Part shown: in pieces, positions 13,682-33,448 of the stretch
Position numbering within the stretch: the stretch's first letter is position 1
Layout of the letters: each line of letters begins with the position of its first letter
DNA from: Desulfosarcina sp.
GTDB taxonomy: Bacteria > Desulfobacterota > Desulfobacteria > Desulfobacterales > JAFDCJ01
NCBI GenBank assembly: GCA_029288035.1
Contig: JARFPZ010000411.1
Location: 1 to 33,448, forward strand
Reading direction: 5' to 3'
DNA length: 33,448 bases
Notes under the pieces: generated by a model
What the model was told of the DNA's origin: nothing
The model's input: only the letters and a program-made list of their open reading frames with translations
The model's database searches: none
Made by a program: the position numbers and the translations under genes

Positions 13682-13704
13682 AATATATGTATTCAGGGGG
13701 AAAA

Positions 13705-16700: not shown

Positions 16701-19200
16701 CTCCTTTTTTGTTAAGGATACCGGCCCCGATGAACCACCAGCCGAAATAACCGTCAACGTAGCGGCCAGCCTTGGAAGCGAACTTTCCGGCCTGAAGGTT
16801 TATGCTTTCACGGAGTTTGGCTCTTATACCGGAATAAAAGCCGTTACGGATGAAACCGGAACGGCCCTTTTTGATACCAAGGATTTCACCGATGGCAGCT
16901 ATAAGTTTCGAGTGGATTATTTGGGTTACCGTTTCTGGTCTGATTCCATCCTGTTACCAGGTACCTATCGAGCGGAGGTCGTCATCCATCAAGAAACCGT
17001 TGAGGTCACCGTGAAAACCGGCATCGGATCATTGCAGGGAGTTAAGGTATATCTTTTTTCGGCCGATGGCGCTTACCTCGGCCTCAATCAAAAGACAGAT
17101 GAAACCGGACAGGTAAGCTTTATGCTGCCCACCGGCGTATCATTTAAATTCAGAGCAGACATCCTGGGCGGAAAGTACTGGAGTGAGGATACCACCCTCA
17201 CTGCCGGTGGAGCAACCACCGTTGACCTGAATGCCGGCGGCGGTGTTTTCCAGGTGACCTTGCAAGAGGAGCCGGGTGTGCCATTGGCAGGGATCAAGGT
17301 CTATCTATTCAGCCAAAGCGGCCGCTATCTGGGGTTAAATCAGGTTTCCGATACCATGGGACACGTGGCATTTGACGTCTCCGAGGGTACCTATACCGTT
17401 CGGGCTGATTTACTGGGCTATCAATTCTGGAGTCCCGAAACCCATGTAACCATCGATACAAATATTGATTTTACCGTCGCCCACCAGGACGTCATCGTCA
17501 CCTTAGACAACGGAACTCCTGAAGTCTTCGAACCGTTGGCCGGGATAAATGTTTACCTTTTCAAGCCTTCGGGTTCATACCTTGGGAAAAACCAGGTCAC
17601 CGATGAGAACGGACAGGCTCGCTTTCATCTACCCCGCCAGCCTTATCAAATCCGGGCGGATTTTCTGGGACAACAGTATTGGTCGGATCTTTTCACCTGG
17701 ACGGACCCCATCGTCACCATCCCCATGGCCGATGTCGAAATCACCGTAACCGGAGGTGGGTTTCCCGCCCAAGATCAGGCCGTGTATGTATTTTCACCCT
17801 CCGGTTCTTATCTGGGTATCCGTCAAACCACCAACGGCGACGGCAAAGTGTTTCTCCGGCTGCCGCAAGGAGAATATCAATTCCGCGCTGATTATCAGGG
17901 TAGCCGATATTGGAGTGATGTGGAATCTGTGACAGCCGCTCAGCAGAATTCAGTCACGATATCAACCGGTGGCGGTAGTTTTGCCGTATCGATTTTAAAA
18001 TCAAATGGTCAACCCCTGGCTGGTATCAAATGTTACGTATTCAATGCGAGTGAGGCCTATCTGGGCTTGTATGGCGCCACCGATGGCAATGGACAAGTTT
18101 TCTTTGATCTGGCAGATGGAAATTTTAAGTTCCGGGTAGATTATCTGGGCAGCCGGTTTTGGAGCAATGAAGTTTCGGTACCGCAGGTATTGTCGACGAA
18201 TGTGGCCATTGAGCACGAAACTGTGGAGGTCAGTGTGACCACGAGTGCGGGTGCTGTCAAAGGTGTGAAGATTTATCTTTTTTCTGCCAACGGCACTTAT
18301 CTCGGCCGCTATAAAGAGACGGATACAGCGGGCAATGTGTCCTTTGATCTTCCGGTTGACAGCGATTATCAGTTCAGGGCCGATATTCTGGGCAGTAAAT
18401 ACTGGAGCGATGTGCTTAGGGTTTCCAGCGGCTTAACCAATTTTATACCGATTGACGCCGGCGGGGGGGTGTTGCAGATGACTGTGCAAAAGGACGAGGA
18501 TTTACCCATGCCGGAATTAAAGGTCTATCTCTTCAATACCGCCGGCACCTATCTTGGCCGGAGCGCGACAACCGATGCCACCGGAAAGGTAGAATTCAGG
18601 GTACCAGAAGAAAGCTACATGCTGCGGGCGGATTACCTCGGCTACCAGTTCTGGAGTGAGGAGATTTTGGTAGTCGAAAATACGGTTATGGAGATGCCGA
18701 TACCCCACCGGCCGGTTGAAATTACCGCACAGGGATCTTTTCAAGGCATGTCGGCACCCATTGAAGGAATCAAGGTCTACTTGTTTTCCCCGACAGATAC
18801 ATATCTGGGTCAATCTAAACTCACCGATGCAGACGGCAAGGCCATTTTTGACTTGCCTCAGAAGAGCTACAAGGTGCGAGTGGATTATCTGGGCTACCAA
18901 TTCTGGTCCGAGGCTTTCCAGTCAGACGATACAACGGTGACGATAGGTCGGGGCTTGGCCGAAATTCACGTCCAGCGTTCCGGCAACGATGTCGCCGGAG
19001 CCAAGGTCTACCTGTTCAGTGAAAACGGTTCTTATCTCGGATGGAATGAAATCACCAACCTAACCGGTATCGCTGAGTTTGTGTTGCCTGATCGTGCATT
19101 TAAGTTCCGCATTGATGAAAATGGTGAGCAACACTGGACCCCGCTGATTCAAATCCATGCCGGTCAGCAAAGTATGATTGATTTTGATCTTGATCATTAA
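13705..19200 (+). CDS. Giant secreted repeat protein (Ig/Fn3-like modules plus ten C-terminal ~80-aa repeats)
   Basis: The protein has 1831 aa. The ATG at 13705 is chosen because it follows AGGGGGA; the ATG at 13687 has no ribosome site. Residues 1-30 are a Sec signal (ending NPAVSFA). Residues ~30-445 are unrecognised and beta-rich. ~446-536 is a cadherin/He_PIG-like Ig module (SATPLPAGANFTDQGTGSGIFNWTP). 539-583 holds calcium-binding DxDGDG loops. ~590-1010 has four Fn3-like modules, each with a (Y/F)xWR strand and an FFVN-type end. ~1014-1831 is ten tandem repeats with the pattern G(I/V)KVYLFS, YLG, TD-x2-G, FR(A/V)DYLG, then F/Y-WS, ending at the C-terminus. It is a likely surface or extracellular structural protein. 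No anchor motif or catalytic domain is visible. Confidence 0.93.
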   Translation: MGKAYFFDRRIALYFTLLLGWVAMNPAVSFAVDSVCARVKIEIKQELTLERQAFDAHLRVNNGLSHIALEDTRVDVFFTDAAGNPVSASSDPNDGSALFYIRLDSMENIDDVNGNGTILPSTTADIHWLIIPSPGSSNGLESGTLYYVGARFTYLIGAQEKVTEVTPDYIFVKPMPQISLDYFLPIEVYGDDAFTPEIEPPVPFSMGVRINNTGHGVTKNLKIDSAQPKIVENEQGLLIGFSIEGSEVNGKTTTDSLLVDFGDIDPDNAATARWNMSCTLSGKFMEFSAGFSHSDELGGELTSLISDARTHFLVHDVLVDLPGRDTILDFLAKDGDIFRIYESDAVDTEVTNQSGTSTLQMNGSTGALTASPTNGFMYVQLDDPFGGEKDIKDVIRSDGKIFKTHNAWMSKIRNEDHSWRHLINLFDVDTPGAYTIKFAEADDIPLPPVLQFIENRIGLEGLPVSILVEADDPNGSIPVLSATPLPAGANFTDQGTGSGIFNWTPALGQAGSYEITFKASDGLLAHTRRVVLTINSIHDSDGDGMLDAWEMQYFGSLDRDGTGDFDQDGISDLEEFLYGSDPIIEEHAPSTPVIISPQADAQVNLMQPELVIENSIDEDGDVLTYEFEVFADPALTIRVAAEVEVTQGVTTTSWNIPETLDDNRRYHWRVRATDGYSFSLWTYGTFFVNTINNTPGPFYISSPGDDTVVDTRTPVLEVTNTVDPDEDEVTYTFEVYDDNTLSNPVVSGTDIPQGPYGSTSWMVDSALADNTWYFWRAVVTDDHGASTLTAVGSFLVNIDALVPEAPQPASPATNSDVSTRQLDLVVTNSANAGNHSYYFELDKAETFDSPAKLTSGEVIEGTDTTAWHVSGLDDNTWYFWRVKAGNGSGESGWTQRAFFVNTANDAPFSPTLKNPGRQAWLGTLTPALDLSPGIDPEADNLSYRFEIYADEDLTTLVEHGVSASAQWRVPSELTDKTRYFWRAQAEDVHGLTGNWMDTASFFVKDTGPDEPPAEITVNVAASLGSELSGLKVYAFTEFGSYTGIKAVTDETGTALFDTKDFTDGSYKFRVDYLGYRFWSDSILLPGTYRAEVVIHQETVEVTVKTGIGSLQGVKVYLFSADGAYLGLNQKTDETGQVSFMLPTGVSFKFRADILGGKYWSEDTTLTAGGATTVDLNAGGGVFQVTLQEEPGVPLAGIKVYLFSQSGRYLGLNQVSDTMGHVAFDVSEGTYTVRADLLGYQFWSPETHVTIDTNIDFTVAHQDVIVTLDNGTPEVFEPLAGINVYLFKPSGSYLGKNQVTDENGQARFHLPRQPYQIRADFLGQQYWSDLFTWTDPIVTIPMADVEITVTGGGFPAQDQAVYVFSPSGSYLGIRQTTNGDGKVFLRLPQGEYQFRADYQGSRYWSDVESVTAAQQNSVTISTGGGSFAVSILKSNGQPLAGIKCYVFNASEAYLGLYGATDGNGQVFFDLADGNFKFRVDYLGSRFWSNEVSVPQVLSTNVAIEHETVEVSVTTSAGAVKGVKIYLFSANGTYLGRYKETDTAGNVSFDLPVDSDYQFRADILGSKYWSDVLRVSSGLTNFIPIDAGGGVLQMTVQKDEDLPMPELKVYLFNTAGTYLGRSATTDATGKVEFRVPEESYMLRADYLGYQFWSEEILVVENTVMEMPIPHRPVEITAQGSFQGMSAPIEGIKVYLFSPTDTYLGQSKLTDADGKAIFDLPQKSYKVRVDYLGYQFWSEAFQSDDTTVTIGRGLAEIHVQRSGNDVAGAKVYLFSENGSYLGWNEITNLTGIAEFVLPDRAFKFRIDENGEQHWTPLIQIHAGQQSMIDFDLDH
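15319..15450 (+). other. Calcium-binding DxDGDG loops within the giant repeat protein
   Basis: Residues 539-583 read DSDGDGMLDAWEMQYFG, then DRDGTGDFDQDGISDLEEFLYGSDP. These are spaced D-x-D-x-D loops of the thrombospondin type-3/EF-hand-like kind that bind Ca2+ outside cells. They form a hinge between the Ig-like module and the Fn3-like array. Confidence 0.75.
16744..19197 (+). repeat. Ten tandem ~82-residue repeats, arranged as two blocks of five
   Basis: Each unit is a small beta-sandwich-like module resembling carboxypeptidase-regulatory/prealbumin-type domains: VEVTV, L(A/Q)G(I/V)KVYLFS, GxYLG, TDxxGxxxF, FR(A/V)DxLG, (F/Y)WS(D/E). Unit boundaries pair up at a distance of five. Units 2 and 7 both open ETVEV(T/S)V and lead into a GGG. 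Units 3 and 8 follow that GGG and end in a histidine-containing hinge. Units 4 and 9 carry an extra PLAG/PIEG lead-in. Units 5 and 10 are the short ones. Confidence 0.85.
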
Positions 19201-19290: not shown

Positions 19291-20238
19291 ATGAAGTTTA
19301 CCATAACATCTAGATGTAAATATCTTCTGATCGCAGCCGTCCTGATACTGGGTTTGTCAATCCAGGCGCCGGCTGACGCTGGAAACCATGGGACCAATAA
19401 GGCCGATAAGTCCTATACTCGCTTTTCTGCATTACCGGAGAAGTTATTCAAACGCAAACTCAAGCAGCATGATCCTTCCTATGCAATATCACCGGAAGCA
19501 GTTCTTTACAAATTGAAGCAAACTCATAATATCACCCTCGTAGATGTACGCAGCCCGGAAGACTTCAAGCGATTGCATATACCCGGATCTCTCAACATTC
19601 CTTTGCATGCAGTCAAAACCAAAGGCTTTTTAAGGTCTGTTGCCGTTGTCCTCATCCATGAAGGGTTTCAATACAGTTTGCTGGAAACCGAATGTCGTCA
19701 ACTTACGGATATGGGTTTTAAAGTGCTTATTTTGGACGGAGGTCTACCTGCCTGGGAACGCAGCGGAAATAAAGTTGCTGGAGACCTATTTGCGCTGGAA
19801 GAAATGCAAATAGTATCTCCTCAGGTTTTATTCCAAGAAAAAGATTACGAAAACATCCTGTTACTCGACATCTCCCCGGTTAAGTCAAACATCTCCAGGC
19901 AGTGGATGTCTCACTCAAAGCACCTGCCGGTTTCGGCTGAAGCGGGCGAATGGGCAAGAAAAATTGAGCGGACTATCGCAAGCCATAAGAACCAACCATT
20001 TTTCTCTATTCTGGTTTTTAATGAAACCGGCGATGGCTATGGCAGAGCAAATAAAATACTATCCAATCTGGGCCTAAATGCTTTTTTTCTACAAGGCGGT
20101 GTTGCCGGTTATCGTCGATACTTGAGAAATTTAATGCTTTCCTGGCAGCCACTGGATAGCCGTATCAAGACAAGCCGGAAATGCAGAACCTGCGTCAAAG
20201 AGAATGAAGAAAACATCATCACCCAAGTATGCAAATAA
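19291..20238 (+). CDS. Exported double-rhodanese protein lacking both catalytic cysteines
   Basis: The 315-aa protein has a Sec-type N-terminus (residues ~10-30, ending PADA) and GGAGGG before the ATG. Domain 1 (~65-160) is clearly rhodanese-like: ITLVDVRSPEDFKRLHIPGSLNIP, then GFKVLILDGGLPAWERSG. Its active-site loop reads IHEGFQY, so Ile122 occupies the cysteine position (C-x2-G pattern) and the arginine is Gln. Domain 2 (~172-285) ends AFFLQGGVAGYRRYL, and its loop NETGDGYGRA has Asn244 in the cysteine place. Sulfur transfer by the usual mechanism is therefore unlikely, and a binding or structural role is more plausible. The C-terminus has CRTC and a final Cys. It lies 90 bp after the repeat-protein gene and 35 bp before the RHS gene, probably in one operon with the latter. 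Confidence 0.85.
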   Translation: MKFTITSRCKYLLIAAVLILGLSIQAPADAGNHGTNKADKSYTRFSALPEKLFKRKLKQHDPSYAISPEAVLYKLKQTHNITLVDVRSPEDFKRLHIPGSLNIPLHAVKTKGFLRSVAVVLIHEGFQYSLLETECRQLTDMGFKVLILDGGLPAWERSGNKVAGDLFALEEMQIVSPQVLFQEKDYENILLLDISPVKSNISRQWMSHSKHLPVSAEAGEWARKIERTIASHKNQPFFSILVFNETGDGYGRANKILSNLGLNAFFLQGGVAGYRRYLRNLMLSWQPLDSRIKTSRKCRTCVKENEENIITQVCK

Positions 20239-20273: not shown

Positions 20274-23200
20274 ATGATGAATAAGCAACCCAACAGCTCA
20301 ATTTATAATCAATTCATTGGAGGGTTCAAATTCTATGAATTAAGGTTGCAGAATCAATCAACATACAATCTTTTTACGATCATAGCTTTTATCGTCATCC
20401 TGTTTTCCATTCCATCGACAATATGCGCTGAAACATTTGTCAGCGGCGACATCAGACAAAATACGACCTGGACTCTTGAGGGCAGTCCTTACATTGTGAC
20501 CGGTGACATAACCGTAGCCAGTTTGGATTATAGCTATCATAGCGATCCCGATTCGGTGAGGCTGACCATCGAGCCGGGAGTACAGATTCGCTTTAATCCG
20601 GGTACGGGCTTGATTGTGGGCATAGGTTTTCACTCGATCGCCGGCTATTATGGTGCCTTGTCGGTGCAGGGAACTGCAGAGTCTCCCGTAGCCTTTACGT
20701 CCAACGCAGAATCGCCGGCGCCGGGGGACTGGAAGGGGATCTATTTCCGCAACGAAACCCATGATGCAGCAACCCTGTTGGAACACTGCGTTGTCGAATA
20801 TGGCGGACACACTCAAAATGCGAACATATATTTTGCCAATGCAAATCCAGTCATAAATAACAGCACTATCCGATTCAGTAGTTCGGACGGAATCTATTTA
20901 AGCAATTCATCACCTGCTATCGACAACAACACAATAACCAATAATTCCAACTACGGTATTTCCGGCAATATCTATTCGGCAGGATTCATCACCGATAATA
21001 CGCTTTCAGATAACGGCCAAGCAGCCATTAACATCCATCCGAGTGCAGCCGGAAGGGTCAGCGGAAACAGTGGTTCTGGCAATGGTCAGGATCTCATTCG
21101 GGTCTATGGGGGTGAGTTGAGAGCTAACAGCACCTGGGTAAAGCAAGAGTTGCCCTTTGGCATTACCGGTGACATAACCGTGTCCAGTTGGGATTTTAGC
21201 GATCACAGTAATCCCTGTTCGGTGACTTTGACCATCGAGCCGGGGGTGCAGATTCGCTTTAATCCGGGCACAGGCTTGATTGTGGGCATAGCTTTTCACT
21301 CGAATGCCGGCTATTATGGGGCCTTATCTGCGCAGGGGACGGCAGATTCCCCTATAATTTTTACTTCCAACGCAGCATCGCCGGCACCGGGTGACTGGAA
21401 GGGGATCTATTTCCGCAATGAGACCCATGATTCAGCAACCCTGTTGGAGCACTGCATCGTCGAATACGGTGGTCATACCAACAATGCCAATCTTTATCTT
21501 TCCAATGCCAAACCAACAATCCAATACAACACCATCCGCAATAGCAGCCATTCCGGACTGTACATTAATGGGGGCGGTTCCAACGACGCTTCCATCCGCT
21601 GCAATAATCTCAAAGACAACCTCTATGGGGTATATGTCGTCAACAACGCCTACCCCTTAATTGCCGGTAATAATTTTCTGAGAAACCAAATCTACGGTGT
21701 TAACAACACCGGTACCACCAGCGTGAATGCCAAAAACAATTGGTGGGGGGATGCCGACGGTCCGGGGTTTAACGGTGATGAAGTTTACGGAAACGTGGAC
21801 TACGCACATTGGTTGACAGCCGAAAGCGACTGCATCAATACGCCGCCCACCAATAACCTTCCATTTGAGCCCAGATATCCGATCCCGGACAGCGAAGCCG
21901 TGCGGGTGCCGGTGCTGGAAGAGGAGCAGCCCATAGCTGTTACACTGACGTGGGTAGGCGGCGATCCCAATCCGTGGGATACAGTAGTCTATGATGTATA
22001 TTTCGGAACGGATGTGGACGCCCTCGAACTCATCGCTGAAGCTGTCGAAACAACAACTATTGATAAAACCGATCTTGCGGATGGCACCACCTATTACTGG
22101 AAAATAGTAGCCAAAGACGATGCCGGTGCCGAAACCGCCGGGCCGGTTTGGAATTTTACAACGATGGGTGATCTGCCGGATCTGATTTTTTCCGATGTTG
22201 TCTGGAATCCGACCTCCGATCTGCAAGCCGGACAGACCATCACCTTTACAGCCACGGTTGAAAATATCGGCAGAGGACCCGTTGTCGATGCCTTCCAAGT
22301 GGATTTTAATATTGATGGTACTAGCATCGGCAGCAAAACGCTTGACTCGGTCATCGCTGCAGGCAGCATAACCCAGGTCGTTCAATCCTGGACGGCTCGC
22401 ACCGGCGATTTTGGCATCGAAGTAATGGCCGACAGCACCGGAACGGTCGTCGAGTCCTTTGAGGAGAACAATACCCTGTCGGCCGGTTTACCTAATATCA
22501 TCGATCCAACTGCGCCGGAGCTTGTCAGCACCGTCCCGGATCACAACGCATCGTTAAATGATCTCTCCCGCATTGAGTTTACCTTGTTTGATCAATTCGG
22601 CACTGTTGATGATGCCGCCGTTATCGCCGGCGTTTCCGTAATCGACAGCAACAACCAGTCGGTCGGTTTTAGCGTGTCTGAAAATAATGATATTTTTACC
22701 ATCACGCCGGATAGCTTGCCGCTAAATGACGGTACCTACGAGGTTTCCCTAACTGCAATCGATTTGACCGGCAATACCCAAAGTTACAACTTTTCTTTTA
22801 CGGTAGACAAACAGGACCCGGCTGAACCAGTTATTACCGGCGGCACGGTCACCAGCGGCGTAATCCAGGCGCGCCCGGCCCAAAACAGCTCCAGCAGCGC
22901 CACTGTGACCTTGACCGGCACCTGCGAAGACAATACCGATGTATGGATCAATAACCAGCTAACAGTAGATTCAGGCAGTAACGACTGGTCGGTGGATATG
23001 ACGTTGACCCAGGGAAATAATTCGCTAGAAATCTGGGCAGAAGATGCGGCCGGCAACCGCAGCCCGTCCGTATGGGTGGACGTTCAGGTTGATTCCATCG
23101 CTCCGATTATCACCGACGTCGCGCCGGCAAACAACAGCTTTATCAATATCTCACCGGTCACGATCATGATCGATTATCAAGAAACCGGCAGCGGCGTGAA

Positions 23201-26200
23201 CATCGAAAACAGCAGTCTTTCGATTAGAAACGGCAATCAGGTGGAAGTTGCCGGGACCTGGTCCGATTCCGACGGACATCAACTGATCTTTAGCCCGGCG
23301 ACTATATTGGAGGAATCCTCTTATACGATCGCTCTTAAACTAGTCGATAGTCTGGGCAATCAGGGTGCGGCTGCCCAATATCATTTTACCGTGGACACGA
23401 TCCCGCCGCCGGCTCCCCAAATCCACCCGGTCACATCACCGACCCACAACCCCACCCAGGAGGTAACCGGCACCAAGGAAGCCTATGCCGCCATTCTGGC
23501 AAATGGACAGCAGGCGGTGGGTCACACAGCCTCAACCGACTGGCAACATACATTGAACCTGGTCAGCGGCCAGAATCAATTTACATTTATCTCTAGAGAC
23601 CGGGCCGGTAACCAGGGTGAGGGGATTAGCGTCGGCATACTATTCGACGATATTCCGCCACCGCCCGTGAATACCCTTGGGGTAAATGGGCAGGGTGACG
23701 GTACCACGGTCTATCTGGACTGGAACGGTTATGACGAGACCGGCCATGGCGATATTGCTTTTTATCGGATCTATGCTGAAACCGCCGCCTTCAACAATGT
23801 TTCCGGGCTCACCCCACACAGCACGACGGCTGCCGGACACTTTTCCGCCACCGCACAAAACCTCGCCCGCAGCACCACCTATTGGTTTGCCGTCATCGCT
23901 GTGGACGCCATGGGCAATGCCCAATCCACGGTCAATCCTGTCTCCGGTGCACCTCTGGACGTGGTACCGCCGGAAGATATCGCAAACCTTCAAGTCCAAT
24001 CATTCGCCGATCGTCTGGTATTTACCTGGAATCATTCGGCCGACACTGCCGGCGACTTGGCCGGCTACCGGATCGCTTTTGGCGATGACAATACCGGCCA
24101 GATTATTCCGGCCACCCAAAATTCCTATGAAAAGACCGGTCTGACTGCAGCCGCCGGCTACCTGTTCAAGGTCTTTGCCATTGATAACGACACCAACGAG
24201 AGCAACGCTGCAGCAATCACGGGGGTAACCTTGCTGCCGAATCCAGGCAACACAGCAGCAGATCCCCAAAGCGGGTATGTGGATCTCTCCTGGAATGGGG
24301 CGACGCCATTGCAATATGTGAGGCACTATGCTGTTTATAAAAGCGAAAGCGGTTTTTCAACAATCGAGGGGCTGAGCCCGCTTCTTACCACGACAAACAC
24401 AACCGCCAAAGTCGCCGGTTTGACCAACGGCCAAACTTACTATTTTGCGGTGACCACCGTAAACGTCTCAGGCGGCGAAGATAAAGCCGTGTCCACCGTC
24501 TCCGCCACACCGTCGCAGGATACTTCAGGCCCTGAAATCAGCGACGTAAAAATTGACGGATCCATTCTGGTCAGCGGCCACATCCTGAACAAACCGGCGA
24601 CCTTCACCGCGGTTGCCACCGACCCGGCCGGAATCAGCCGGTTGGAGTTTGCCATCGATTCAGATCCGATCCGCACCGATTACAATCCCGTATATTCCTG
24701 CTACTGGAATGTCGTACCCATCGACAACGGTAATTACACCCTGACCGTCACTGCCTATGACACCCTGGGCAACAGCTCGACCCTTGACGTTGCTCTGGTG
24801 GTCGCCCTGGAACCGCCCGCAGCCCCTGTTATCAACCAGCCGGTGAGTGGCATTCTCACCAATCAACCGACGATGATGGTTTCCGGCCTTGGAGAGAAAT
24901 ATACCGACGTCATGGTTTATAATAATTCGACGGAAGTCGGTAATTGGGCAGCGGTGGACGCTCTCGGCAATTTCAGCGCTTCTGTAACTCTGGCTGAAGG
25001 TGAAAACCGCTTCCAGGCCGCCGCCCGCAACCCGGCCGGCATCGGACCGTTAAGCAGCCAGGTGCTGGTCTCCCTGGACACCAGCCTGCCGGCAAGTCCC
25101 ACAAACTTGATGGCCCAGGCCAAACAAGGCGGGATTGTGCGCTTAACCTGGCAGCCGCCGTCGGATACATCGGTTTCTGGCTATAACCTGTATCGCAGCC
25201 ACAGCCCTTTCAGTGACACCCAGGCAGCCGCCAAAATTAATGCCAGTCTAATAACGATGCCTGTATTTGAAGACCTCCCCCCAGCTGACGGTATCTGGTA
25301 TTACCACGCCACCACCATCGATATTGCCGACAATGAAAGTCAGCTCTCCAATGAGGCGCCGGCAGTGTCCGATAGCACCGCACCGCGAGCGGTGTCCATC
25401 GATTATAGTTCCCGGGGGCCCTATGACCCGGCCGGCGAAAGGATGGCGGCGGCAACCGTAAACCTAATACTCACGGTCAATGAGCCGCTGCAGACCACCC
25501 CTTATTTAAGTATTGTTCCCCAGGGTGGGATGCCGCTTGCGGTGGCGCTGACCAAGGACACGGATCTGACCTATACCGGATTCTTTGTAATATCCGCCAC
25601 CACACCCGGCGGAACGGCCCATGCTATTTTTTCCGGTCGGGATAGTGTCGGCAACCGCGGCACTGAAATTGATGCCGGTGCTTCCATCCAAATCGATACC
25701 GCCGGGCCGGCGATCCGTCGTCTGGTGATTGACCCCTCATCTCCCATTAAAAATGATGAGCAGGTGCCGGCAACGGTCACGGCAATAGTCGGTCTCAATG
25801 AACAGGTAAAGAACGGTACCCGACCGCAGCTAGCTTACCTGCTCTCAGGGGAAGGGCGTCAGACCAGCGACATCGATCAATTGAGCGAAATGAGTCCCCA
25901 GGCCGGCGATGCTCAGACCTGGCAGGTCCAATTCACCCTGCCGGCGGATGCCGGCCTGAACGAATCGGAAACATTTTATTTCATCTACCAGGGATCCGAT
26001 GATCTGGATAATCTCAATGACAGGATTCTAACCGATAATATTTTCCAGGTCTACCAGAGCGACCTGCCGCCCCTCGAGCCACCCCAAGGACTCACCGCTG
26101 TGGCGCTGCCAGAGGGGCGGATCCGGCTGACCTGGAATGCCGTGGATGAGGCCGTGGGGTATCAATTATACCGCAAGGCACCGGGGGAAAGTGAGTTAAT

Positions 26201-29200
26201 CGAATATCAGCGTCTTGACCTGGTTGTAGCATATACGGACCCAACCGCAGTTGACGGCCCTTATACCTATACCGTGGCCAGCATTCGCCGGCAAAACGAC
26301 CAGGAAGCTGTCAGCGGTCAGAGTGCCGAGGTGACCGTAACGTCTGATTCAATGGCGCCCGACGCACCTCATAACTTGGCTTTGGAACTTGTGGCCAACG
26401 GCATCAAGGCCGAGTGGTCGCCACCGCCGTTTACCGAAGCAATGACATATTCGCTCTACCGCGCAGCAGCATCTGAAATTATTTCGGTGGCAGGCCTCGA
26501 TCCCCTGGCCATCGGTATCGCCCAAACCCTGGTGGTGGACCCCATGCCGTCACCATCGGCCCATTGTTATGTGGTGACTGCGGTGGATGCCGTGGGCAAC
26601 GAGTCGCCGCCGTCAAACTCATTTTACCTGAACTTCCAACTCTTACCAATATCCGGTATCACCGTCCTGCAAGCGGACAACGAGCCGCCCCAGGTGACCT
26701 GGACGCATCCGGGGGGCGATATTGCCGGCTATGACATTTACCTGGGGACGGAAGATGAGCCTGTCAAGCTAAACCCAACCCTGTTGACCGGGCATTCGTT
26801 TATCGATACTGGTTACGGCCGGGATGAACGACGTTACACGGTAACTGCCCAAGATAACAACGGGGTAGTCAGTCTGGGACGTAGCATCCGCTTGCCGAAA
26901 CTTTCAGCAGCACTTGTTGAGGGTGTCCGGATCAGACGCGGCATTATGAATCGCCTGGATTATGTCGTCTCAAACGAGGGATCGGACCGGGTGGCGAGCA
27001 TCCGGCTGAAGGTCACGGTGGGTTCCCATGATCATACCTCGGATATATTCAGTCTCGATCCGGGCACATCCCGTACAATCCCCGTGGTCGTGGGCGGCTA
27101 TGATGATTTGGAAGGCATGGCCGCATTGACTACAACTATCGAAGTCACCCCGCAATCCAATGAAATCGTTCAGATAGTCCGCAGCAATTACATCGAAGTT
27201 GACGACGGTATGTTGGTGCTGCAGATCTTAAACGAGGAATTCACCCGGGCGGCATCGGGCCGGGTTCGATTTACCCTGGAAAACACCGGTGAAGCCGACA
27301 TCGAGATCATTACCGCCCGGAATTCGGGCACGTCCCCATCCGACCAGATCATATTCTATCTGGTCGATGAAGACGATAATGTGCTCACTTCAAAAGCATT
27401 TACCCAGACCGTCGGCGATAAGATTGTCACCCTATCAAACCGCAACACCGTGGCCCGCATTGGTGTCGGCCAAACCTTTACCTCGGACTTTATCACCCTC
27501 CCGGTCCCGGCCAATGCGCCCGATGACGTCACCCTCCGCCTGGATATCGCCAATGTTTATTATCACCAGGATCAGACCACCCAGGTCACCATGAAAGGGC
27601 TTTCCTCCACCCATCAAATTGCCATGGTGGATACAGCCTACTACGGTGAGGTGGCAAATATGGTTCCTCAAATCTCCACCGGCGATCAGGACATCATGAT
27701 CACCGGGCAAGCCGTGGAAAGGGTCAGCGGTGATCTAATGGCAAATGTACCGCTGAACCTCGTGATCACCATAAACGGCTTTGAACGTGCCGCCAGTGTC
27801 TACACCGGTGAGGATGGTATTTTTAATCACCATTTCAAGCCGCTGTCAGGTGAATCCGGAGTCTACGAGGTACGAGCGGTGCACCCGGACCGCACCGACA
27901 AACCGGTCCATGGTCAATTTGTGATCAATCGGGTGAGCGTCACGCCGACGGCCATCAATTTGAACGTACCTAAAAACTACAGCAAAACCGTCAGCATCCG
28001 GGTGGACACCGGTGAGGGGACTGCCGTTAACAAGCTGCGTCTGGAATACAATCGGGAAGATCAACCCACCGAAGAATATCCCCCGGGTGTGCACCTGACC
28101 ACCGGCGCCGCCAATGCCTATTTGGACGGCAACAAAACGGCCTGGCTGCCATTTACGCTGTGGGCCGATAATACGGCGGAGACCTCCTCAAAGCTGGTGC
28201 TCAAGGTGAAAAGCGATGAATCCCATCCAGACGCCTGGGGTACGGTAACGGTCAACACGCAATTTTCCGAGGCCAGCCCGGTGCTGCACTTTTCACCGAA
28301 TCACGTGGAAACCGGCACGTCTCGTGAAAAAGCGGTCACCGAAACCGTGGTGCTGGAAAATAAGGGTTTGGCGCCACTCAATGACGTCAGGTTGTCACTG
28401 CACAACCAAGACGGCAGCCCGGCCCCGGGCTGGGTCTATCTGACCTCATCTGCGGACCAGGGCGTCATTGAGGTGGGCGATCGACGTAATCTCGGCATTG
28501 CGTTTTCTCCCACCTCCGCCGTGGCCGAAGGTAATTATGCCTTTGGTCTGCGGGTCAACGCTTCCAACTATGCGGCCACCACCATCAATTTGCATCTGGC
28601 CGTAACCCAGCAAGGCCGGGGCAATGTCTTGTTTAAGGTTTCCGACATATATACCGGCACCCTCAACCAAAACGGCGATCTCATCCAGGGACTTGGCGAT
28701 GCCAGGATAAAACTCCAAAATGAGGCGGTCCTGATCGAAGAATACACCGGCTACACGGACAGCTTCGGTGAAGCCTGGTTTGAAGATATCCCTTCCGGTC
28801 GGTACAAGTGCCGCATTACCGCAAAGAATCATCAGGATTATATCGGCCGTATCTGGATCAAACCGGGGGTCTCCCTGAATGAAGATGTTTTCCTCGACTA
28901 CAACCTGGTGACGGTGGAGTGGGAAGTCAATGAAATCACCATTGAAGACAAGTATGAAATTGTATTGACCGCCACCTATGAAACCGATGTACCGGCGGCG
29001 GTGGTAGCCGTCCAGCCCGCTTCGATCAGCCTGCCGACCATGAAAGCCGGCGATGTGTTTAACGGTGAATTCACCCTGACCAATTACGGGTTGATTCGCG
29101 CCGACGACCTGGAAGTGAGTTTGCCGCCCGACGATCCGTATTTCATCTACGAGCTGATGGGCGGTCTGCCGGACAGCCTTTCCGCCAAGGAACAAATAAT

Positions 29201-32200
29201 CGTCCCTTACCGGGTCACCTGTATCAAATCTCTCGATCAGCAGGATGACGGTCTGGCCACCGGCGGTGGCTGCCATAACTACCGAACCTGCGCGGTGGTG
29301 GACTATGGCTATGTCTGTGCCAACGGGCAGTCGACCAAGGCCGCCATCAATCATTGTTGGACCCGAACCTATGGCGAATGCACCACTGGCGGCAGTATCA
29401 TCATTAGCGCCGGCACCGGCGGCGGCACCTGGAGCGTCGGTGGCGGCACCGGTAGCGGCACCATCTCCAAACCGGCCCCCAAGCCCAAGACCATTCAGGG
29501 CGTGACGTGCTTTCCGAAGCCGACGCTCAAAGAATGGTTTTTTGAAAAATGGGGCGCTTTAAAGGAAACCTATAAAAATTGGAAACAAAACGTCGGCTGC
29601 TCGGTGAACACGGTCACACGGCAATACAATGACGATGCCGTCGATTTGGCCGTCAAAGTACCCGGTGGGATGGTGTCTGTCCAGCGCTGGTTTTACAACG
29701 ACCAGTGGTCATGGGGGTATACCCGCAGCAATCTCAAATTTAATTTGAGCTCACTGGGAGGGGGCATTGAATCCATAGATAAGGGTGGCGTCGTTTACGA
29801 GGCTTCTGCAATCGACGCGAACCTGTTTGTCCATGATGTTTATAAAATAAGCCGACGTGATGATGCCTATCGATGGGAAGATAAACGTGGCTCCTGGAAA
29901 GAATATGACGCAACCGGTCGTTTGACGTCTTTCGGTAACCGCACCGGTGTTTTAGGTCGGCTGTTATACGAGGAGGGAGAAAACGGCGAGCCCATCGGTG
30001 TGGCGGATCGCAATGACCAACAGGTACTCTGGTATGAGTATGACGACGATGATCGACTGCAGGCCGTACATGATGTTGATGACCGCAGGGTAGAGTACAG
30101 TTACACCAACGGCCGTTTGACGGCCGTAAGAGATGTGCTGGGCAACGATACGTCTTACCAGTACGACAGCAAGGGACGGTTGAGCATGACCCTTGATGCC
30201 GCAGGGCGCCCGACGATCATTACATATGACAGCTATGGCAACGTTGATTCCGTATTGGATCAGGATGGTAACGGCCATGGCTTTGAGTATGATTACGATG
30301 AAGCCAAAAGTGAACTATATGCCAGGATAACGTCCACATCCGGCAGAATAAAGGAAGTCTGGTACGACAAAGACGGTGAAACCAGAAAAGTTGCCATCAA
30401 TGGCCGCATCTTGCAAAAGATCGAAAAAGATGGTCGCAATCTCATCATCACCGGTGAGAAAGGCAAGGTAACCCGCAAGGAATTTGATGAGTGGGATAAT
30501 CTCACCCGTGTCATTTATCCTGACGGCACCTCGGCATCCTTTGAATACGAGCATAAATTCAACAAACCCACCCGCTCCGTCGACCAGCGAGGAAATGTCA
30601 GTGAATATGAGTATGACGAGCAGGGTAATCTCATCACTAAGACCGAGGCGGTCGGAACCCCTGTCGAAAGAGTGACAACCTACACCTATGATGAAACCAG
30701 CCGGCTGCTGACCGCGACCGTTGAGGCCGATGACGACACAGAAGCCGCCACCACGACGTTCGCCTACGACGAAAACGACAATGTGGACGCCATCACCGAC
30801 CCTGAAGGCAACAAGACTTTATTTTTGGGATATGATAATTCCGGCAACCTGCTGAAGCTGCACGATCCTCGCGGGTATGAGTGGACCTTTGAGTATGATG
30901 ATCTGGGACGGTTGACATCCCAGAGCGATCCCCTCGATCACATCACCGCTTATGAGTATGACGGGGCTAACAACCGGACAGCCGTCATCAATGCACTACT
31001 TAAACGCTTTGAGTTTGAATACGATGACCATAACAATCTGATTAAAGCCATCGATCCTTACCAAAAGGTTATCACGACCGAGTACAACACCGACCATCTG
31101 CCGCTAAAGGTGATTGATCAGGAAGGCAAGCTTTCTGAAGTAACACATGATAACGAAGGCCGTACTATTGAAGCCATCGACGGTGCGGGCAACGAAATCG
31201 TCTACCATTATGATGAAACGACGGCGACATCGGTCTCCTCTTACAAGCCGGTGCGCATCGACTATCCGACCTTCAGCCGAAAATACGACTACGACGACCT
31301 TGAGCGCGTCGTCCAGGAAGTCGATATATTGGATGAAACCACCAGCCGCACCCGCAGCTATGTTTACGATCCGGCCGGTAATATCATCGCAGCCTCGAAT
31401 GAGCAGGAAAGCACCACCCAGTACGAATACGATGCCCTCAATCGTCTGGTAAAAACCTCCGATCCCCTAAACGGTGTCACCAAGCGCAGTTATGATGACA
31501 GGGGAAATCTGATCGCCATCGAAAACCCCAATAACGGGATCATCTACTATGAGTATGACCGCAACAACCGTCTGATCAAAACCATCCGGCCGATGCTGCA
31601 GGAAACCGCCTACGAATATGATGCCTCCGGCAACCGCACAGCGGTCTATGACACCAAAGGGCAAAAGATTGCCTACGATTACAATCCTCTGAACCGTCTG
31701 ACACGGTGCAGGTACTACGCCGTCGGCGATCATGCCAACCCGGTCAAAATCGTCGATTTTACCTACGATAATCTGGGCAATATTAAAACCTACGACGACG
31801 GTACCACATCCGCTGAATATACTTACGATGATCTCCAGCGCAAGATCGGTGAGGTAGTCGACTACGGACCGTTTACCAGCAGTATCTCCTACGCCTACTA
31901 TGCCAATGGTCTGAAAAAGACCTTTAGCGGCCCGGATGGTGCAGCCATCGACTACATCTATGATGAAAACAACCGCATCAGCCGCATTGACATTCCCGGC
32001 CAGGGACAAATTACTTACAATACCTATCAGTGGAACAGCCCCACCCGCATGACGCTGCCCGGTGGCAGCGCCACCGACTACAGCTACGATCCCTTAATGC
32101 AGATTGAGTCGATCGCAACCGAGGATCCGGGTCAAAACCCGCTCATGACCCGCGATTATACCTATTCGGCGACAGGCGACATCACGACGAAAGACACCGA

Positions 32201-33448
32201 GCACGGCAACTACACTTACCAATATGACGAGCTGCGGCGATTGTCCGAGGCCGTCAATCCGTTAGGCGCTAATGAAGCCTATAGCTATGATGCCTTGGGT
32301 AACCGTTTGACTGCCGCCGGCGTAGCGGGAGACTGGCGCTACAATGCCAACAACGAGCTGTTGGGTTATGACAACGTTTCGTATTCATATGATGATAACG
32401 GCAATACCACCCGCAAAACCCAGGGAGTCCAGGAAACTAATTACGTCTACGATGTGGAAGATCGTTTGATACGGGTAAAAGGCAACGTTGGTGACGTAAT
32501 TGCCGAATATTACTATGATCCCTTTGGCCGCCGGCTGTGGAAAGAAGTTGACGGAATACGGACATATTTTGTATACTCGGATGAAGGTTTAATCGGTGAG
32601 TATGATGAAAGCGGTGCAGAAATCCGCGGCTACGGATACGCGCCGAATTCGCAATGGAGCACCGATCCGCTCTTTTACAAACGGCAGGGCCAGTATTACT
32701 GGTACCAGAACGACCACCTGGGTACGCCGCAGAAGATTATCGAAACCAGCGGCCGGGTCGTCTGGTCGGCGCTGTATGATTCGTTTGGTAATGTTCAGAT
32801 CGAGACGTCAGAAATTACCAATAACCTGCGTTTTGCAGGCCAATACCACGATGCCGAAACCGGACTGCACTATAACCTTAACCGGCACTACGACCCCACC
32901 ACCGGTAGATATCTCAGAACGGATCCCTACGGCGAAGGCCTGAATCTGTATGCCTATGTGTTTAATAATCCCAATAGTCTGATAGATCCGCTGGGATTGT
33001 GTCTTTATAATAAAGTATCAGGATGGGTGCATGGCGGCCTGGCGGTCATTGGTTTAGTGCCTCTTCTTGGAATTGTTCCCGACCTTATTGATGCCGGTCT
33101 TTACCTGCTTCAAGCCGAGTATAGCGATGCAGCGTTGGCGGGTATTGCTGCAATACCCATAGCTGGCTATTTCGGCCGTGGGGCACAGTATGGGGTTAAA
33201 TTCGTTAAGTGGGGCTCCAAGTATTTGCCGGATGCTATTAATTTCGCGAAGAAGGCAAACAAATTAGGAAAAAACTTATACCAAAAGATATTTGAGAAAT
33301 TTTCCCCAAAGACTAGAATTTTTTGGTCTGGAAGTAGTGAAGCACGTGCCGCTGCAGAATCATTCGCTAAAGCAAACGGTGGTAAAACTCTGGAAATGAC
33401 ATTGCCAGGTAGAATATTAAATAAGGCTACGACTAAGCGAACTTATCC
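20274..33448 (+). CDS. Giant secreted RHS/YD-repeat protein with probable C-terminal toxin (3' end beyond window)
   Basis: The frame is open for 4391 codons from an ATG behind GGAGAGGAAA, with no stop before the edge. The signal peptide has a long n-region (core residues 33-49, STICA). Residues 54-540 are two beta-helix modules (PGVQIRFNPGTGLIVG, GDWKGIYF) closing in AKNNWWGDADGPG. Next come an Fn3-like module (~555-632), a CARDB-like module (~633-733), many Ig/Fn3-like modules (to ~2780) and a carboxypeptidase-regulatory-like module (~2785-2880). A Cys/Gly-rich linker (3000-3070) is followed by dozens of YD repeats (~3200-4140). The RHS core (YYWYQNDHLGTPQKI, AGQYHDAETGLHYNLNRHYD, GRYLRTDP, NLYAYVFNNP) ends in DPLGL (4238-4242). 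A hydrophobic pre-toxin segment and a charged tip follow. It is a surface polymorphic toxin by architecture. Confidence 0.95.
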   Translation, partial: MMNKQPNSSIYNQFIGGFKFYELRLQNQSTYNLFTIIAFIVILFSIPSTICAETFVSGDIRQNTTWTLEGSPYIVTGDITVASLDYSYHSDPDSVRLTIEPGVQIRFNPGTGLIVGIGFHSIAGYYGALSVQGTAESPVAFTSNAESPAPGDWKGIYFRNETHDAATLLEHCVVEYGGHTQNANIYFANANPVINNSTIRFSSSDGIYLSNSSPAIDNNTITNNSNYGISGNIYSAGFITDNTLSDNGQAAINIHPSAAGRVSGNSGSGNGQDLIRVYGGELRANSTWVKQELPFGITGDITVSSWDFSDHSNPCSVTLTIEPGVQIRFNPGTGLIVGIAFHSNAGYYGALSAQGTADSPIIFTSNAASPAPGDWKGIYFRNETHDSATLLEHCIVEYGGHTNNANLYLSNAKPTIQYNTIRNSSHSGLYINGGGSNDASIRCNNLKDNLYGVYVVNNAYPLIAGNNFLRNQIYGVNNTGTTSVNAKNNWWGDADGPGFNGDEVYGNVDYAHWLTAESDCINTPPTNNLPFEPRYPIPDSEAVRVPVLEEEQPIAVTLTWVGGDPNPWDTVVYDVYFGTDVDALELIAEAVETTTIDKTDLADGTTYYWKIVAKDDAGAETAGPVWNFTTMGDLPDLIFSDVVWNPTSDLQAGQTITFTATVENIGRGPVVDAFQVDFNIDGTSIGSKTLDSVIAAGSITQVVQSWTARTGDFGIEVMADSTGTVVESFEENNTLSAGLPNIIDPTAPELVSTVPDHNASLNDLSRIEFTLFDQFGTVDDAAVIAGVSVIDSNNQSVGFSVSENNDIFTITPDSLPLNDGTYEVSLTAIDLTGNTQSYNFSFTVDKQDPAEPVITGGTVTSGVIQARPAQNSSSSATVTLTGTCEDNTDVWINNQLTVDSGSNDWSVDMTLTQGNNSLEIWAEDAAGNRSPSVWVDVQVDSIAPIITDVAPANNSFINISPVTIMIDYQETGSGVNIENSSLSIRNGNQVEVAGTWSDSDGHQLIFSPATILEESSYTIALKLVDSLGNQGAAAQYHFTVDTIPPPAPQIHPVTSPTHNPTQEVTGTKEAYAAILANGQQAVGHTASTDWQHTLNLVSGQNQFTFISRDRAGNQGEGISVGILFDDIPPPPVNTLGVNGQGDGTTVYLDWNGYDETGHGDIAFYRIYAETAAFNNVSGLTPHSTTAAGHFSATAQNLARSTTYWFAVIAVDAMGNAQSTVNPVSGAPLDVVPPEDIANLQVQSFADRLVFTWNHSADTAGDLAGYRIAFGDDNTGQIIPATQNSYEKTGLTAAAGYLFKVFAIDNDTNESNAAAITGVTLLPNPGNTAADPQSGYVDLSWNGATPLQYVRHYAVYKSESGFSTIEGLSPLLTTTNTTAKVAGLTNGQTYYFAVTTVNVSGGEDKAVSTVSATPSQDTSGPEISDVKIDGSILVSGHILNKPATFTAVATDPAGISRLEFAIDSDPIRTDYNPVYSCYWNVVPIDNGNYTLTVTAYDTLGNSSTLDVALVVALEPPAAPVINQPVSGILTNQPTMMVSGLGEKYTDVMVYNNSTEVGNWAAVDALGNFSASVTLAEGENRFQAAARNPAGIGPLSSQVLVSLDTSLPASPTNLMAQAKQGGIVRLTWQPPSDTSVSGYNLYRSHSPFSDTQAAAKINASLITMPVFEDLPPADGIWYYHATTIDIADNESQLSNEAPAVSDSTAPRAVSIDYSSRGPYDPAGERMAAATVNLILTVNEPLQTTPYLSIVPQGGMPLAVALTKDTDLTYTGFFVISATTPGGTAHAIFSGRDSVGNRGTEIDAGASIQIDTAGPAIRRLVIDPSSPIKNDEQVPATVTAIVGLNEQVKNGTRPQLAYLLSGEGRQTSDIDQLSEMSPQAGDAQTWQVQFTLPADAGLNESETFYFIYQGSDDLDNLNDRILTDNIFQVYQSDLPPLEPPQGLTAVALPEGRIRLTWNAVDEAVGYQLYRKAPGESELIEYQRLDLVVAYTDPTAVDGPYTYTVASIRRQNDQEAVSGQSAEVTVTSDSMAPDAPHNLALELVANGIKAEWSPPPFTEAMTYSLYRAAASEIISVAGLDPLAIGIAQTLVVDPMPSPSAHCYVVTAVDAVGNESPPSNSFYLNFQLLPISGITVLQADNEPPQVTWTHPGGDIAGYDIYLGTEDEPVKLNPTLLTGHSFIDTGYGRDERRYTVTAQDNNGVVSLGRSIRLPKLSAALVEGVRIRRGIMNRLDYVVSNEGSDRVASIRLKVTVGSHDHTSDIFSLDPGTSRTIPVVVGGYDDLEGMAALTTTIEVTPQSNEIVQIVRSNYIEVDDGMLVLQILNEEFTRAASGRVRFTLENTGEADIEIITARNSGTSPSDQIIFYLVDEDDNVLTSKAFTQTVGDKIVTLSNRNTVARIGVGQTFTSDFITLPVPANAPDDVTLRLDIANVYYHQDQTTQVTMKGLSSTHQIAMVDTAYYGEVANMVPQISTGDQDIMITGQAVERVSGDLMANVPLNLVITINGFERAASVYTGEDGIFNHHFKPLSGESGVYEVRAVHPDRTDKPVHGQFVINRVSVTPTAINLNVPKNYSKTVSIRVDTGEGTAVNKLRLEYNREDQPTEEYPPGVHLTTGAANAYLDGNKTAWLPFTLWADNTAETSSKLVLKVKSDESHPDAWGTVTVNTQFSEASPVLHFSPNHVETGTSREKAVTETVVLENKGLAPLNDVRLSLHNQDGSPAPGWVYLTSSADQGVIEVGDRRNLGIAFSPTSAVAEGNYAFGLRVNASNYAATTINLHLAVTQQGRGNVLFKVSDIYTGTLNQNGDLIQGLGDARIKLQNEAVLIEEYTGYTDSFGEAWFEDIPSGRYKCRITAKNHQDYIGRIWIKPGVSLNEDVFLDYNLVTVEWEVNEITIEDKYEIVLTATYETDVPAAVVAVQPASISLPTMKAGDVFNGEFTLTNYGLIRADDLEVSLPPDDPYFIYELMGGLPDSLSAKEQIIVPYRVTCIKSLDQQDDGLATGGGCHNYRTCAVVDYGYVCANGQSTKAAINHCWTRTYGECTTGGSIIISAGTGGGTWSVGGGTGSGTISKPAPKPKTIQGVTCFPKPTLKEWFFEKWGALKETYKNWKQNVGCSVNTVTRQYNDDAVDLAVKVPGGMVSVQRWFYNDQWSWGYTRSNLKFNLSSLGGGIESIDKGGVVYEASAIDANLFVHDVYKISRRDDAYRWEDKRGSWKEYDATGRLTSFGNRTGVLGRLLYEEGENGEPIGVADRNDQQVLWYEYDDDDRLQAVHDVDDRRVEYSYTNGRLTAVRDVLGNDTSYQYDSKGRLSMTLDAAGRPTIITYDSYGNVDSVLDQDGNGHGFEYDYDEAKSELYARITSTSGRIKEVWYDKDGETRKVAINGRILQKIEKDGRNLIITGEKGKVTRKEFDEWDNLTRVIYPDGTSASFEYEHKFNKPTRSVDQRGNVSEYEYDEQGNLITKTEAVGTPVERVTTYTYDETSRLLTATVEADDDTEAATTTFAYDENDNVDAITDPEGNKTLFLGYDNSGNLLKLHDPRGYEWTFEYDDLGRLTSQSDPLDHITAYEYDGANNRTAVINALLKRFEFEYDDHNNLIKAIDPYQKVITTEYNTDHLPLKVIDQEGKLSEVTHDNEGRTIEAIDGAGNEIVYHYDETTATSVSSYKPVRIDYPTFSRKYDYDDLERVVQEVDILDETTSRTRSYVYDPAGNIIAASNEQESTTQYEYDALNRLVKTSDPLNGVTKRSYDDRGNLIAIENPNNGIIYYEYDRNNRLIKTIRPMLQETAYEYDASGNRTAVYDTKGQKIAYDYNPLNRLTRCRYYAVGDHANPVKIVDFTYDNLGNIKTYDDGTTSAEYTYDDLQRKIGEVVDYGPFTSSISYAYYANGLKKTFSGPDGAAIDYIYDENNRISRIDIPGQGQITYNTYQWNSPTRMTLPGGSATDYSYDPLMQIESIATEDPGQNPLMTRDYTYSATGDITTKDTEHGNYTYQYDELRRLSEAVNPLGANEAYSYDALGNRLTAAGVAGDWRYNANNELLGYDNVSYSYDDNGNTTRKTQGVQETNYVYDVEDRLIRVKGNVGDVIAEYYYDPFGRRLWKEVDGIRTYFVYSDEGLIGEYDESGAEIRGYGYAPNSQWSTDPLFYKRQGQYYWYQNDHLGTPQKIIETSGRVVWSALYDSFGNVQIETSEITNNLRFAGQYHDAETGLHYNLNRHYDPTTGRYLRTDPYGEGLNLYAYVFNNPNSLIDPLGLCLYNKVSGWVHGGLAVIGLVPLLGIVPDLIDAGLYLLQAEYSDAALAGIAAIPIAGYFGRGAQYGVKFVKWGSKYLPDAINFAKKANKLGKNLYQKIFEKFSPKTRIFWSGSSEARAAAESFAKANGGKTLEMTLPGRILNKATTKRTY
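20496..20813 (+). repeat. Direct repeat copy 1 (beta-helix module, period 666 bp)
   Basis: This segment matches 21162-21479 at a constant offset of 666 bp (222 codons) with no visible indel. Long identical DNA runs include CAGATTCGCTTTAATCCGGG and GACTGGAAGGGGATCTATTT. Most differences are single bases, so the duplication is fairly recent or is kept similar by gene conversion. Confidence 0.85.
21162..21479 (+). repeat. Direct repeat copy 2 (beta-helix module)
   Basis: This is the second copy of the 318-bp segment that starts at 20496. Both encode the GDITV...TIEPGVQIRF...APGDWKGIYFRNETHD...LEHC(V/I)VEYGGH stretch of the beta-helix. The sequence following each copy diverges quickly. Confidence 0.85.
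29271..29510 (+). other. Cysteine/glycine-rich linker ahead of the YD shell
   Basis: Residues 3000-3036 hold five cysteines (3000, 3006, 3015, 3028, 3036). They are followed by a flexible tract of GG/GTGGG and SKPAPKPK. More cysteines sit in GVTCFPKP and VGCSVN. This separates the Ig/Fn3 stalk from the YD region and could be a disulfide-locked hinge. The function is inferred. Confidence 0.6.
29880..32690 (+). repeat. YD-repeat (RHS) array
   Basis: A few dozen units of the G-x-x-x-x-x-x-YD-x-x-G-R/N-L type occur (for example YEYDEQGNLI, YEYDDLGRLT, YEYDALNRLV, YDYNPLNRLT). In known RHS and TcC proteins such arrays fold into a hollow shell that encloses the C-terminal toxin (established for the family). 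Confidence 0.92.
33000..33448 (+). other. Probable variable toxin tip of the RHS protein (incomplete)
   Basis: After DPLGL the protein has a hydrophobic segment with Gly/Pro pivots (GGLAVIGLVPLLGIVPDLIDAGLYLL ... ALAGIAAIPIAGYFGRG), as in pre-toxin segments of many polymorphic toxins. A soluble tail follows (IFWSGSSEARAAAESFAKANGGKTLEMTLPGRIL) and runs off the window. The tail resembles C-terminal domains I recall from other RHS toxins, but I cannot name its activity. The immunity gene would be expected just downstream. Confidence 0.65.

What the first reader, a model, noticed from the sequence alone, without database searches (positions are those of the whole stretch)
33000..33448. Unassigned RHS toxin tip with a hydrophobic pre-toxin segment
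The junction DPLGL is followed by a hydrophobic Gly/Pro-punctuated segment and a charged tail starting at IFWSGSSEARAAAESFA. This is where polymorphic toxins exchange warheads. The activity is not recognisable and the domain is cut off, so the downstream sequence should hold the rest and an immunity gene.
Basis: partly seen in the sequence, partly recalled or inferred. Interest (0 to 1): 0.6.

Follow-up and report, generated by a model that had tools for sequence, protein, structure and literature searches.

The report
Truncated NAD-destroying RHS toxin tip
The end of this giant secreted RHS protein is the first half of a known kind of bacterial weapon, a CD38-like ADP-ribosyl cyclase that kills rival cells by destroying their NAD; the rest, and probably an Imm74-type antidote gene, lies past the end of the assembled contig, so this is a recognisable member of a known toxin family.

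Summary
A 4,400-residue secreted RHS protein ends its RHS core at DPLGL (32985-32999). A hydrophobic segment of about 75 residues, a charged linker and a toxin domain follow. The window is the whole contig, so the gene is cut at 33448. A profile of relatives built without the window scores the tip at E 1.2e-15 (best of 5,000 shuffles: 8.8). With the window as one of its 20 rows, the profile matches crystal structures of ARCtox (2.6e-20), Tac1 and CD38. A model of the closest complete relative (pLDDT 92) superposes on ARCtox with Z 11.1. The first Trp and first Glu of the W-E-W-E active site are present; the second pair lies in about 55 missing residues. In the closest relatives an Imm74 immunity gene starts within about 15 bp of the toxin stop. 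The own bin holds neither the second half nor a convincing Imm74. The hydrophobic segment is a shared pre-toxin adaptor, found before several different warheads. Tox-ARC with RHS and Imm74 was described in 2012: a new member of a known kind.

The parts
20274..20429 (+). Start codon and long N-terminal signal peptide (ends ...FTIIAFIVILFSIPSTICA/ETF), implying Sec export
   Evidence: Read by eye from the sequence; RBS-like GAGAGGA just before ATG 20274; not run through a signal-peptide predictor
20430..30494 (+). N-terminal stalk: beta-helix, CARDB, bacterial Ig-like, fn3, glucodextranase-B-like domains
   Evidence: Pfam hits to the translation
30495..32774 (+). RHS/YD repeat region
   Evidence: NCBIfam RHS_core and YD_repeat_2x; Pfam RHS_repeat 4e-70 and RHS
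32775..32999 (+). RHS-associated core domain ending in the DPLGL junction
   Evidence: TIGR03696 residues 4183-4257, 81 bits
33000..33227 (+). Hydrophobic pre-toxin adaptor segment (~75 aa)
   Evidence: Shared with L003/L116 (HNH-like), L044 (ARC) and RHS tips L117-L121 and L123-L125 with other warheads; no Pfam match
33228..33314 (+). Lys-rich charged linker between pre-toxin and toxin
   Evidence: Direct reading of the translation; hydropathy negative
33315..33446 (+). Truncated Tox-ARC (CD38-like ADP-ribosyl cyclase) domain, first ~45%; Trp codon 33324-33326 (FWSG), Glu codon 33393-33395 (TLEMT)
   Evidence: phmmer 9ro8 0.0093, 9ouf 0.097; profile of relatives without the window 1.2e-15; own-genome profile hit 1.0e-17, window row included

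Best explanation
The tip is the N-terminal half of a Tox-ARC warhead on a secreted RHS polymorphic toxin. Inferred working: the protein is exported by Sec, its RHS shell presents or encloses the tip, the hydrophobic pre-toxin segment helps release it or carry it across the target membrane, and the ARC domain hydrolyses NAD+ and NADP+ in the target cell and stops its growth. A small Imm74-family protein, encoded directly after the toxin stop, would block the active-site cleft in the producer. Shown here: family membership of the truncated domain, the first catalytic Trp and Glu, RHS and pre-toxin context, and the fold and W-E-W-E residues in the closest complete relatives. Inferred: activity, delivery, and the missing second half and immunity gene.
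For: phmmer of the last 53 residues against PDB finds only two chains, both bacterial ADP-ribosyl cyclase toxins: 9ro8 (0.0093) and 9ouf (0.097). A profile of plasmid-borne ARC toxins, chosen without the window, also picks the tip. A profile of relatives without the window gives 1.2e-15 versus 8.8 for the best of 5,000 shuffles. The profile including the window matches 9ro8 2.6e-20, 9ouf 3.8e-19 and CD38/Aplysia cyclase about 1e-7 over the whole domain. Nitrosomonas relative L067 passes Pfam ADP-ribosyl cyclase PF02267 (27.3 bits, cut-off 25), through the half that the window lacks. L043 is 72% identical over 43 aligned residues and L067 69% over 39. AlphaFold2 model of the L043 domain: pLDDT 92.3; Z 11.1 to ARCtox, 10.6 to Tac1, 9.8 to CD38. 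The window's FWSG Trp and TLE Glu align to ARCtox W273 and E299, whose alanine changes abolished toxicity in E. coli (PMC12605009; mapping). Imm74 follows L043 and L067 above the Pfam cut-off, and L041 and L071 just below it.
Against: Only about 45% of the domain is in the window; the second Trp and essential Glu (W323/E356 of ARCtox) are beyond the contig end, so an intact enzyme is not shown. No second half and no convincing immunity gene turned up in the bin. The relatives were fetched with a DNA pattern that fixes FWSG...G.TLEMT, so similarity inside those motifs is partly by selection.
Confidence: 0.92

Rival explanations
1. The tip belongs to the ARC fold but is not a toxin: a cADP-ribose-producing or inactive ADP-ribosyl cyclase on a surface protein.
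For: Non-toxic bacterial ARC enzymes exist (Nac1, which has Ala in place of the hydrolysis Glu; PMC12356396). In distant relatives L113/L114 the TLE Glu is replaced by TPGG.
Against: The window keeps the Glu (TLEMT) that PMC12356396 links to hydrolysis of the cADPr intermediate, it sits at an RHS toxin tip, and its closest relatives are followed by Imm74 immunity genes.
Confidence: 0.05
2. A different, unrelated toxin that only shares a short FWSG/TLE motif by chance.
For: Single-sequence E-values are modest (0.0093 and 0.097).
Against: Similarity runs beyond the motif: the LPG+(I/V)L(N/D)K.TTK.TY tail is shared with L043. Profile E is 1.2e-15 without the window, against shuffles at 8.8.
Confidence: 0.02
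3. A naturally broken (displaced, orphan) toxin tip, truncated in the genome rather than by assembly.
For: No second half was found elsewhere in the bin; truncated copies occur among relatives (L057 and L063).
Against: The frame is open to the very last base of the contig, and the contig end coincides with the cut, which points to an assembly break.
Confidence: 0.1

Closest known systems
Tox-ARC polymorphic toxin domain with Imm74 (Zhang et al. 2012, PMC3482391)
   Same: C-terminal ARC domain on RHS proteins is listed, with Imm74 as main immunity partner; the window has an RHS core followed by an ARC domain.
   Different: Window domain is cut off; no immunity gene visible.
ARCtox PANA_2924 of Pantoea ananatis (PDB 9ro8, PMC12605009)
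   Same: First catalytic Trp and Glu, FWSG and GG.TLE motifs; fold of the closest complete relative (Z 11.1).
   Different: PAAR/T6SS carrier there, Sec-exported RHS giant here; Trp-to-Glu loop three residues shorter; the closest complete relative is only about 30% identical over the structural match.
Tac1 of Streptococcus parasanguinis (PDB 9ouf, PMC12356396)
   Same: Same fold and active site; NAD(P)+ hydrolysis through a cADPr intermediate is shown for Tac1.
   Different: LXG/T7SSb carrier; activity not tested for the window domain.
Human CD38 and Aplysia ADP-ribosyl cyclase (PF02267)
   Same: Core fold and W/E/W/E active site (relative's model Z 9.8 to CD38).
   Different: The animal enzymes are longer, with extra helices.

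Membership tests
Tox-ARC / CD38-like ADP-ribosyl cyclase toxin | First active-site Trp (W273 of ARCtox) in an FWSG motif | tested here: met
   Codon 33324-33326; aligned
Tox-ARC / CD38-like ADP-ribosyl cyclase toxin | First active-site Glu (E299 of ARCtox, E146 of CD38) in a TLE motif | tested here: met
   Codon 33393-33395; invariant column in A2
Tox-ARC / CD38-like ADP-ribosyl cyclase toxin | Second Trp and essential Glu (W323, E356 of ARCtox) | not testable with these tools
   Beyond the contig end; nearly invariant (at least 90%) as W60 and E95 in the alignment of relatives
Tox-ARC / CD38-like ADP-ribosyl cyclase toxin | Two-lobed CD38-like fold | tested here: inconclusive
   The window holds only the first part. 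Closest complete relative L043: pLDDT 92.3, Z 11.1 to 9ro8
Tox-ARC / CD38-like ADP-ribosyl cyclase toxin | Sequence match to the family | tested here: met
   Profile of relatives without the window 1.2e-15; independent plasmid ARC profile also hits
Tox-ARC / CD38-like ADP-ribosyl cyclase toxin | Imm74 (or other) immunity gene directly downstream | not testable with these tools
   Contig ends inside the toxin. No Imm74 in the bin with the Pfam model, only E 0.617 with a family profile. Present behind relatives
RHS polymorphic toxin | RHS repeats and an RHS-associated core ending in DPxGL, followed by a tip | tested here: met
RHS polymorphic toxin | Homologous cores carry different tips | tested here: met
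   Tips in related genomes differ completely
T6SS Rhs effector | N-terminal PAAR domain | tested here: not met
   No PAAR hit in P0001; N-terminus reads as a signal peptide, so it is filed as a Sec-exported RHS protein, not a T6SS Rhs effector
Described pre-toxin domains (Pfam) | Match to a Pfam model by the hydrophobic segment | tested here: not met
   No Pfam family at E <= 1 for the isolated segment

The most novel reading that the evidence does not exclude
The 75-residue hydrophobic segment is an undescribed pre-toxin module, absent from Pfam, that RHS and PAAR-type proteins of this order put in front of many unrelated warheads (ARC, HNH, GIY-YIG and unassigned domains). It would act as a common release or membrane-translocation adaptor, so that swapping a warhead means swapping only what follows it.
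Probability: 0.3. Interest if true: 0.45.

Novelty: new member of a known kind. Interest (0 to 1): 0.3.

Why it matters
It turns an 'unassigned' toxin tip into a specific, testable prediction: an NAD(P)+-destroying CD38-like enzyme with an Imm74-type antidote. It extends Tox-ARC to this lineage: besides the window's own genome, one of 395 sampled genomes of the phylum had a profile match. It also shows a shared hydrophobic adaptor in front of warheads of different kinds, which could help find further toxin tips.

Tried and rejected
Pfam on the tip alone: only a chance DUF5759 hit at E 0.13. tblastn of the last 53 residues in plasmids and phages: none. Single-sequence search of 395 genomes of the phylum: only weak hits, and the nine that were translated look like chance (one search was a failed script). 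Viral-contig scans: no confirmed relatives. Search for the last 39 bases elsewhere in the genome, to find an adjoining contig: none. Search of the own bin for the second half with ARC profiles: only the tip itself. Imm74 in the own bin: none with Pfam, 0.617 with a family profile, taken as chance. A structure prediction of the pre-toxin alone was not run.
Full report
What is there. The window is a complete contig (C512, 33448 bases) of a 689-contig genome bin. Its last gene is an open frame of 4,406 codons with no stop before the end. ATG 20274, preceded by GAGAGGA, opens a protein with a long signal peptide-like N-terminus (read by eye, no predictor run). Then come beta-helix, CARDB, Ig-like, fn3 and glucodextranase-B-like domains, RHS/YD repeats and an RHS-associated core that ends at DPLGL, window 32985-32999. 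There is no PAAR domain, so this is best read as a Sec-exported RHS giant and not a T6SS Rhs effector.

The tip. After DPLGL come about 75 hydrophobic Gly/Pro-rich residues (19-residue hydropathy means up to 1.87), a Lys-rich linker, and RIFWSGSSEARAAAESFAKANGGKTLEMTLPGRILNKATTKRTY, which runs into the contig end. phmmer of the last 53 residues against all PDB sequences finds only two chains, both bacterial ADP-ribosyl cyclase toxins: 9ro8 (ARCtox of Pantoea, E 0.0093) and 9ouf (Tac1, E 0.097). A profile made from plasmid-borne ARC toxins, chosen without using the window, also picks out the tip.

Closer relatives. A degenerate DNA pattern for FWSG...G.TLEMT, scanned over 84,980 species genomes, gave 38 stretches. 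I judged about 22 to be ARC domains by their further conserved motifs. Most of the other stretches are one unrelated family from Maribacter and Aquimarina; two Pectobacterium stretches (L037, L072) were left out of the alignment. The closest are L043 (Alphaproteobacteria MAG, 72% over 43 aligned residues) and L067 (Nitrosomonas aestuarii, 69% over 39). Because the pattern fixes about nine residues, identity inside the motifs is partly by selection. The independent evidence is outside the motifs. L067 passes the curated Pfam cut-off of ADP-ribosyl cyclase PF02267 (27.3 against 25 bits) through the half the window lacks, and 13 of 20 alignment members match PF02267 at E <= 0.1. The family profile (A3, window as one of 20 rows) matches 9ro8 at 2.6e-20, 9ouf at 3.8e-19 and animal CD38/Aplysia cyclases at about 1e-7. 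With the window row left out, the profile still scores the tip at 1.2e-15 in a search space of 400,000; the best of 5,000 shuffled tips reached 8.8.

Structure and active site. The L043 domain folds with pLDDT 92.3 and superposes on ARCtox (Z 11.1, 98 residues, 2.7 A), Tac1 (Z 10.6) and CD38 (Z 9.8). ARCtox has four active-site residues, W273, E299, W323 and E356, and alanine at any of them abolished toxicity in E. coli (PMC12605009). I mapped these onto sequence. The window holds the first two: Trp at 33324-33326 and Glu at 33393-33395, 23 residues apart instead of 26. The second two fall in the missing part; in the relatives they are nearly invariant (W60 and E95 of A2/A3). The retained Glu corresponds to Glu516 of Tac1, which promotes hydrolysis of the cADPr intermediate (PMC12356396), so the predicted main product is linear ADP-ribose. 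Activity is inferred, not tested.

Immunity and the missing half. In L043, L067, L041 and L071 a gene for a protein of 85 to 118 residues starts between 14 bp before and 7 bp after the toxin stop. L043 and L067 score above the Imm74 cut-off (42.5 and 46.4 against 27.1 bits); L041 and L071 fall just below it (25.3 and 26.1). The window's own bin (93% complete) shows no second half of the domain, no Imm74 with the Pfam model and only an E 0.617 hit with a profile of the relatives, which I take as chance. The last 39 bases occur nowhere else in the bin. The simplest reading is an assembly break at a variable region, with the remainder unbinned; a natural truncation is not excluded.

Variable tips. 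Related genomes carry homologous RHS cores (up to 57-58% identical in a congener over much of the core), and the tips behind DPxGL differ entirely from one to the next. In a 395-genome sample of the phylum, besides the window's own genome, only one had an ARC profile match, consistent with a rare, exchanged warhead.

Pre-toxin segment. It is not part of the ARC domain. It aligns with a DUF4150/PAAR-like protein that ends in an HNH-like nuclease (L003; both labels judged from the sequence, not from a family hit) and with a Flavobacterium RHS protein that carries it directly in front of an ARC domain (L044). A three-row profile, two of whose rows come from the window's genome and G023, found nine further genomes among 389 of the order at E <= 1e-4. 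Most of these sit behind an RHS core and are followed by different domains. Pfam recognises GIY-YIG in one (L119, 23.6 bits, above cut-off) and weakly HNH in another (L117, below cut-off); other tips, such as L118 and L120, match nothing convincing. The isolated window segment matches no Pfam family at E <= 1. Its role in release or membrane passage is inference, in line with the general idea of pre-toxin domains in PMC3482391.

Comparison with the known. Tox-ARC with Imm74, including RHS carriers, was listed by Zhang et al. in 2012 (PMC3482391). PMC12605009 and PMC12356396 (both 2025) showed NAD(P)+ hydrolysis and solved structures. The window is therefore a new, truncated member of a known kind. 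The most novel remaining part is the shared pre-toxin adaptor.

Noticed in passing
L044, L046, L059; L049, L051; L042, L053, L058, L069; L063, L068 (downstream of the ARC domain): At least four further groups of small downstream genes follow ARC toxins in place of Imm74; the four representatives scanned match no Pfam family convincingly and are candidate alternative immunity families.
   Followed up: partly
L113 and L114 (genome G195, contig C108): Two tandem paralogous proteins, one with a signal peptide-like start in the stretch read, end in ARC-like domains in which the TLE Glu is replaced by TPGG; possibly cyclase-type rather than hydrolase-type enzymes.
   Followed up: no
L117-L121, L123 and L125: The same pre-toxin segment precedes different warheads (HNH-like, GIY-YIG and unassigned) behind RHS-type proteins of the same order.
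   Followed up: partly
window 13687-19200 and 19291-20238: A 1,837-residue Ig-like/carboxypeptidase-regulatory-like protein and a rhodanese-domain protein lie directly upstream of the RHS gene on the same strand.
   Followed up: no
window 12505-13458 and 11034-11987: A transglutaminase-like protein and a choline/ethanolamine kinase-like protein upstream on the same strand.
   Followed up: no
G005:C681 and G005:C649 (L110, L111): Congeneric contigs with 57-58% identical RHS cores also break off inside the core, suggesting that assemblies fail at these repeats.
   Followed up: no
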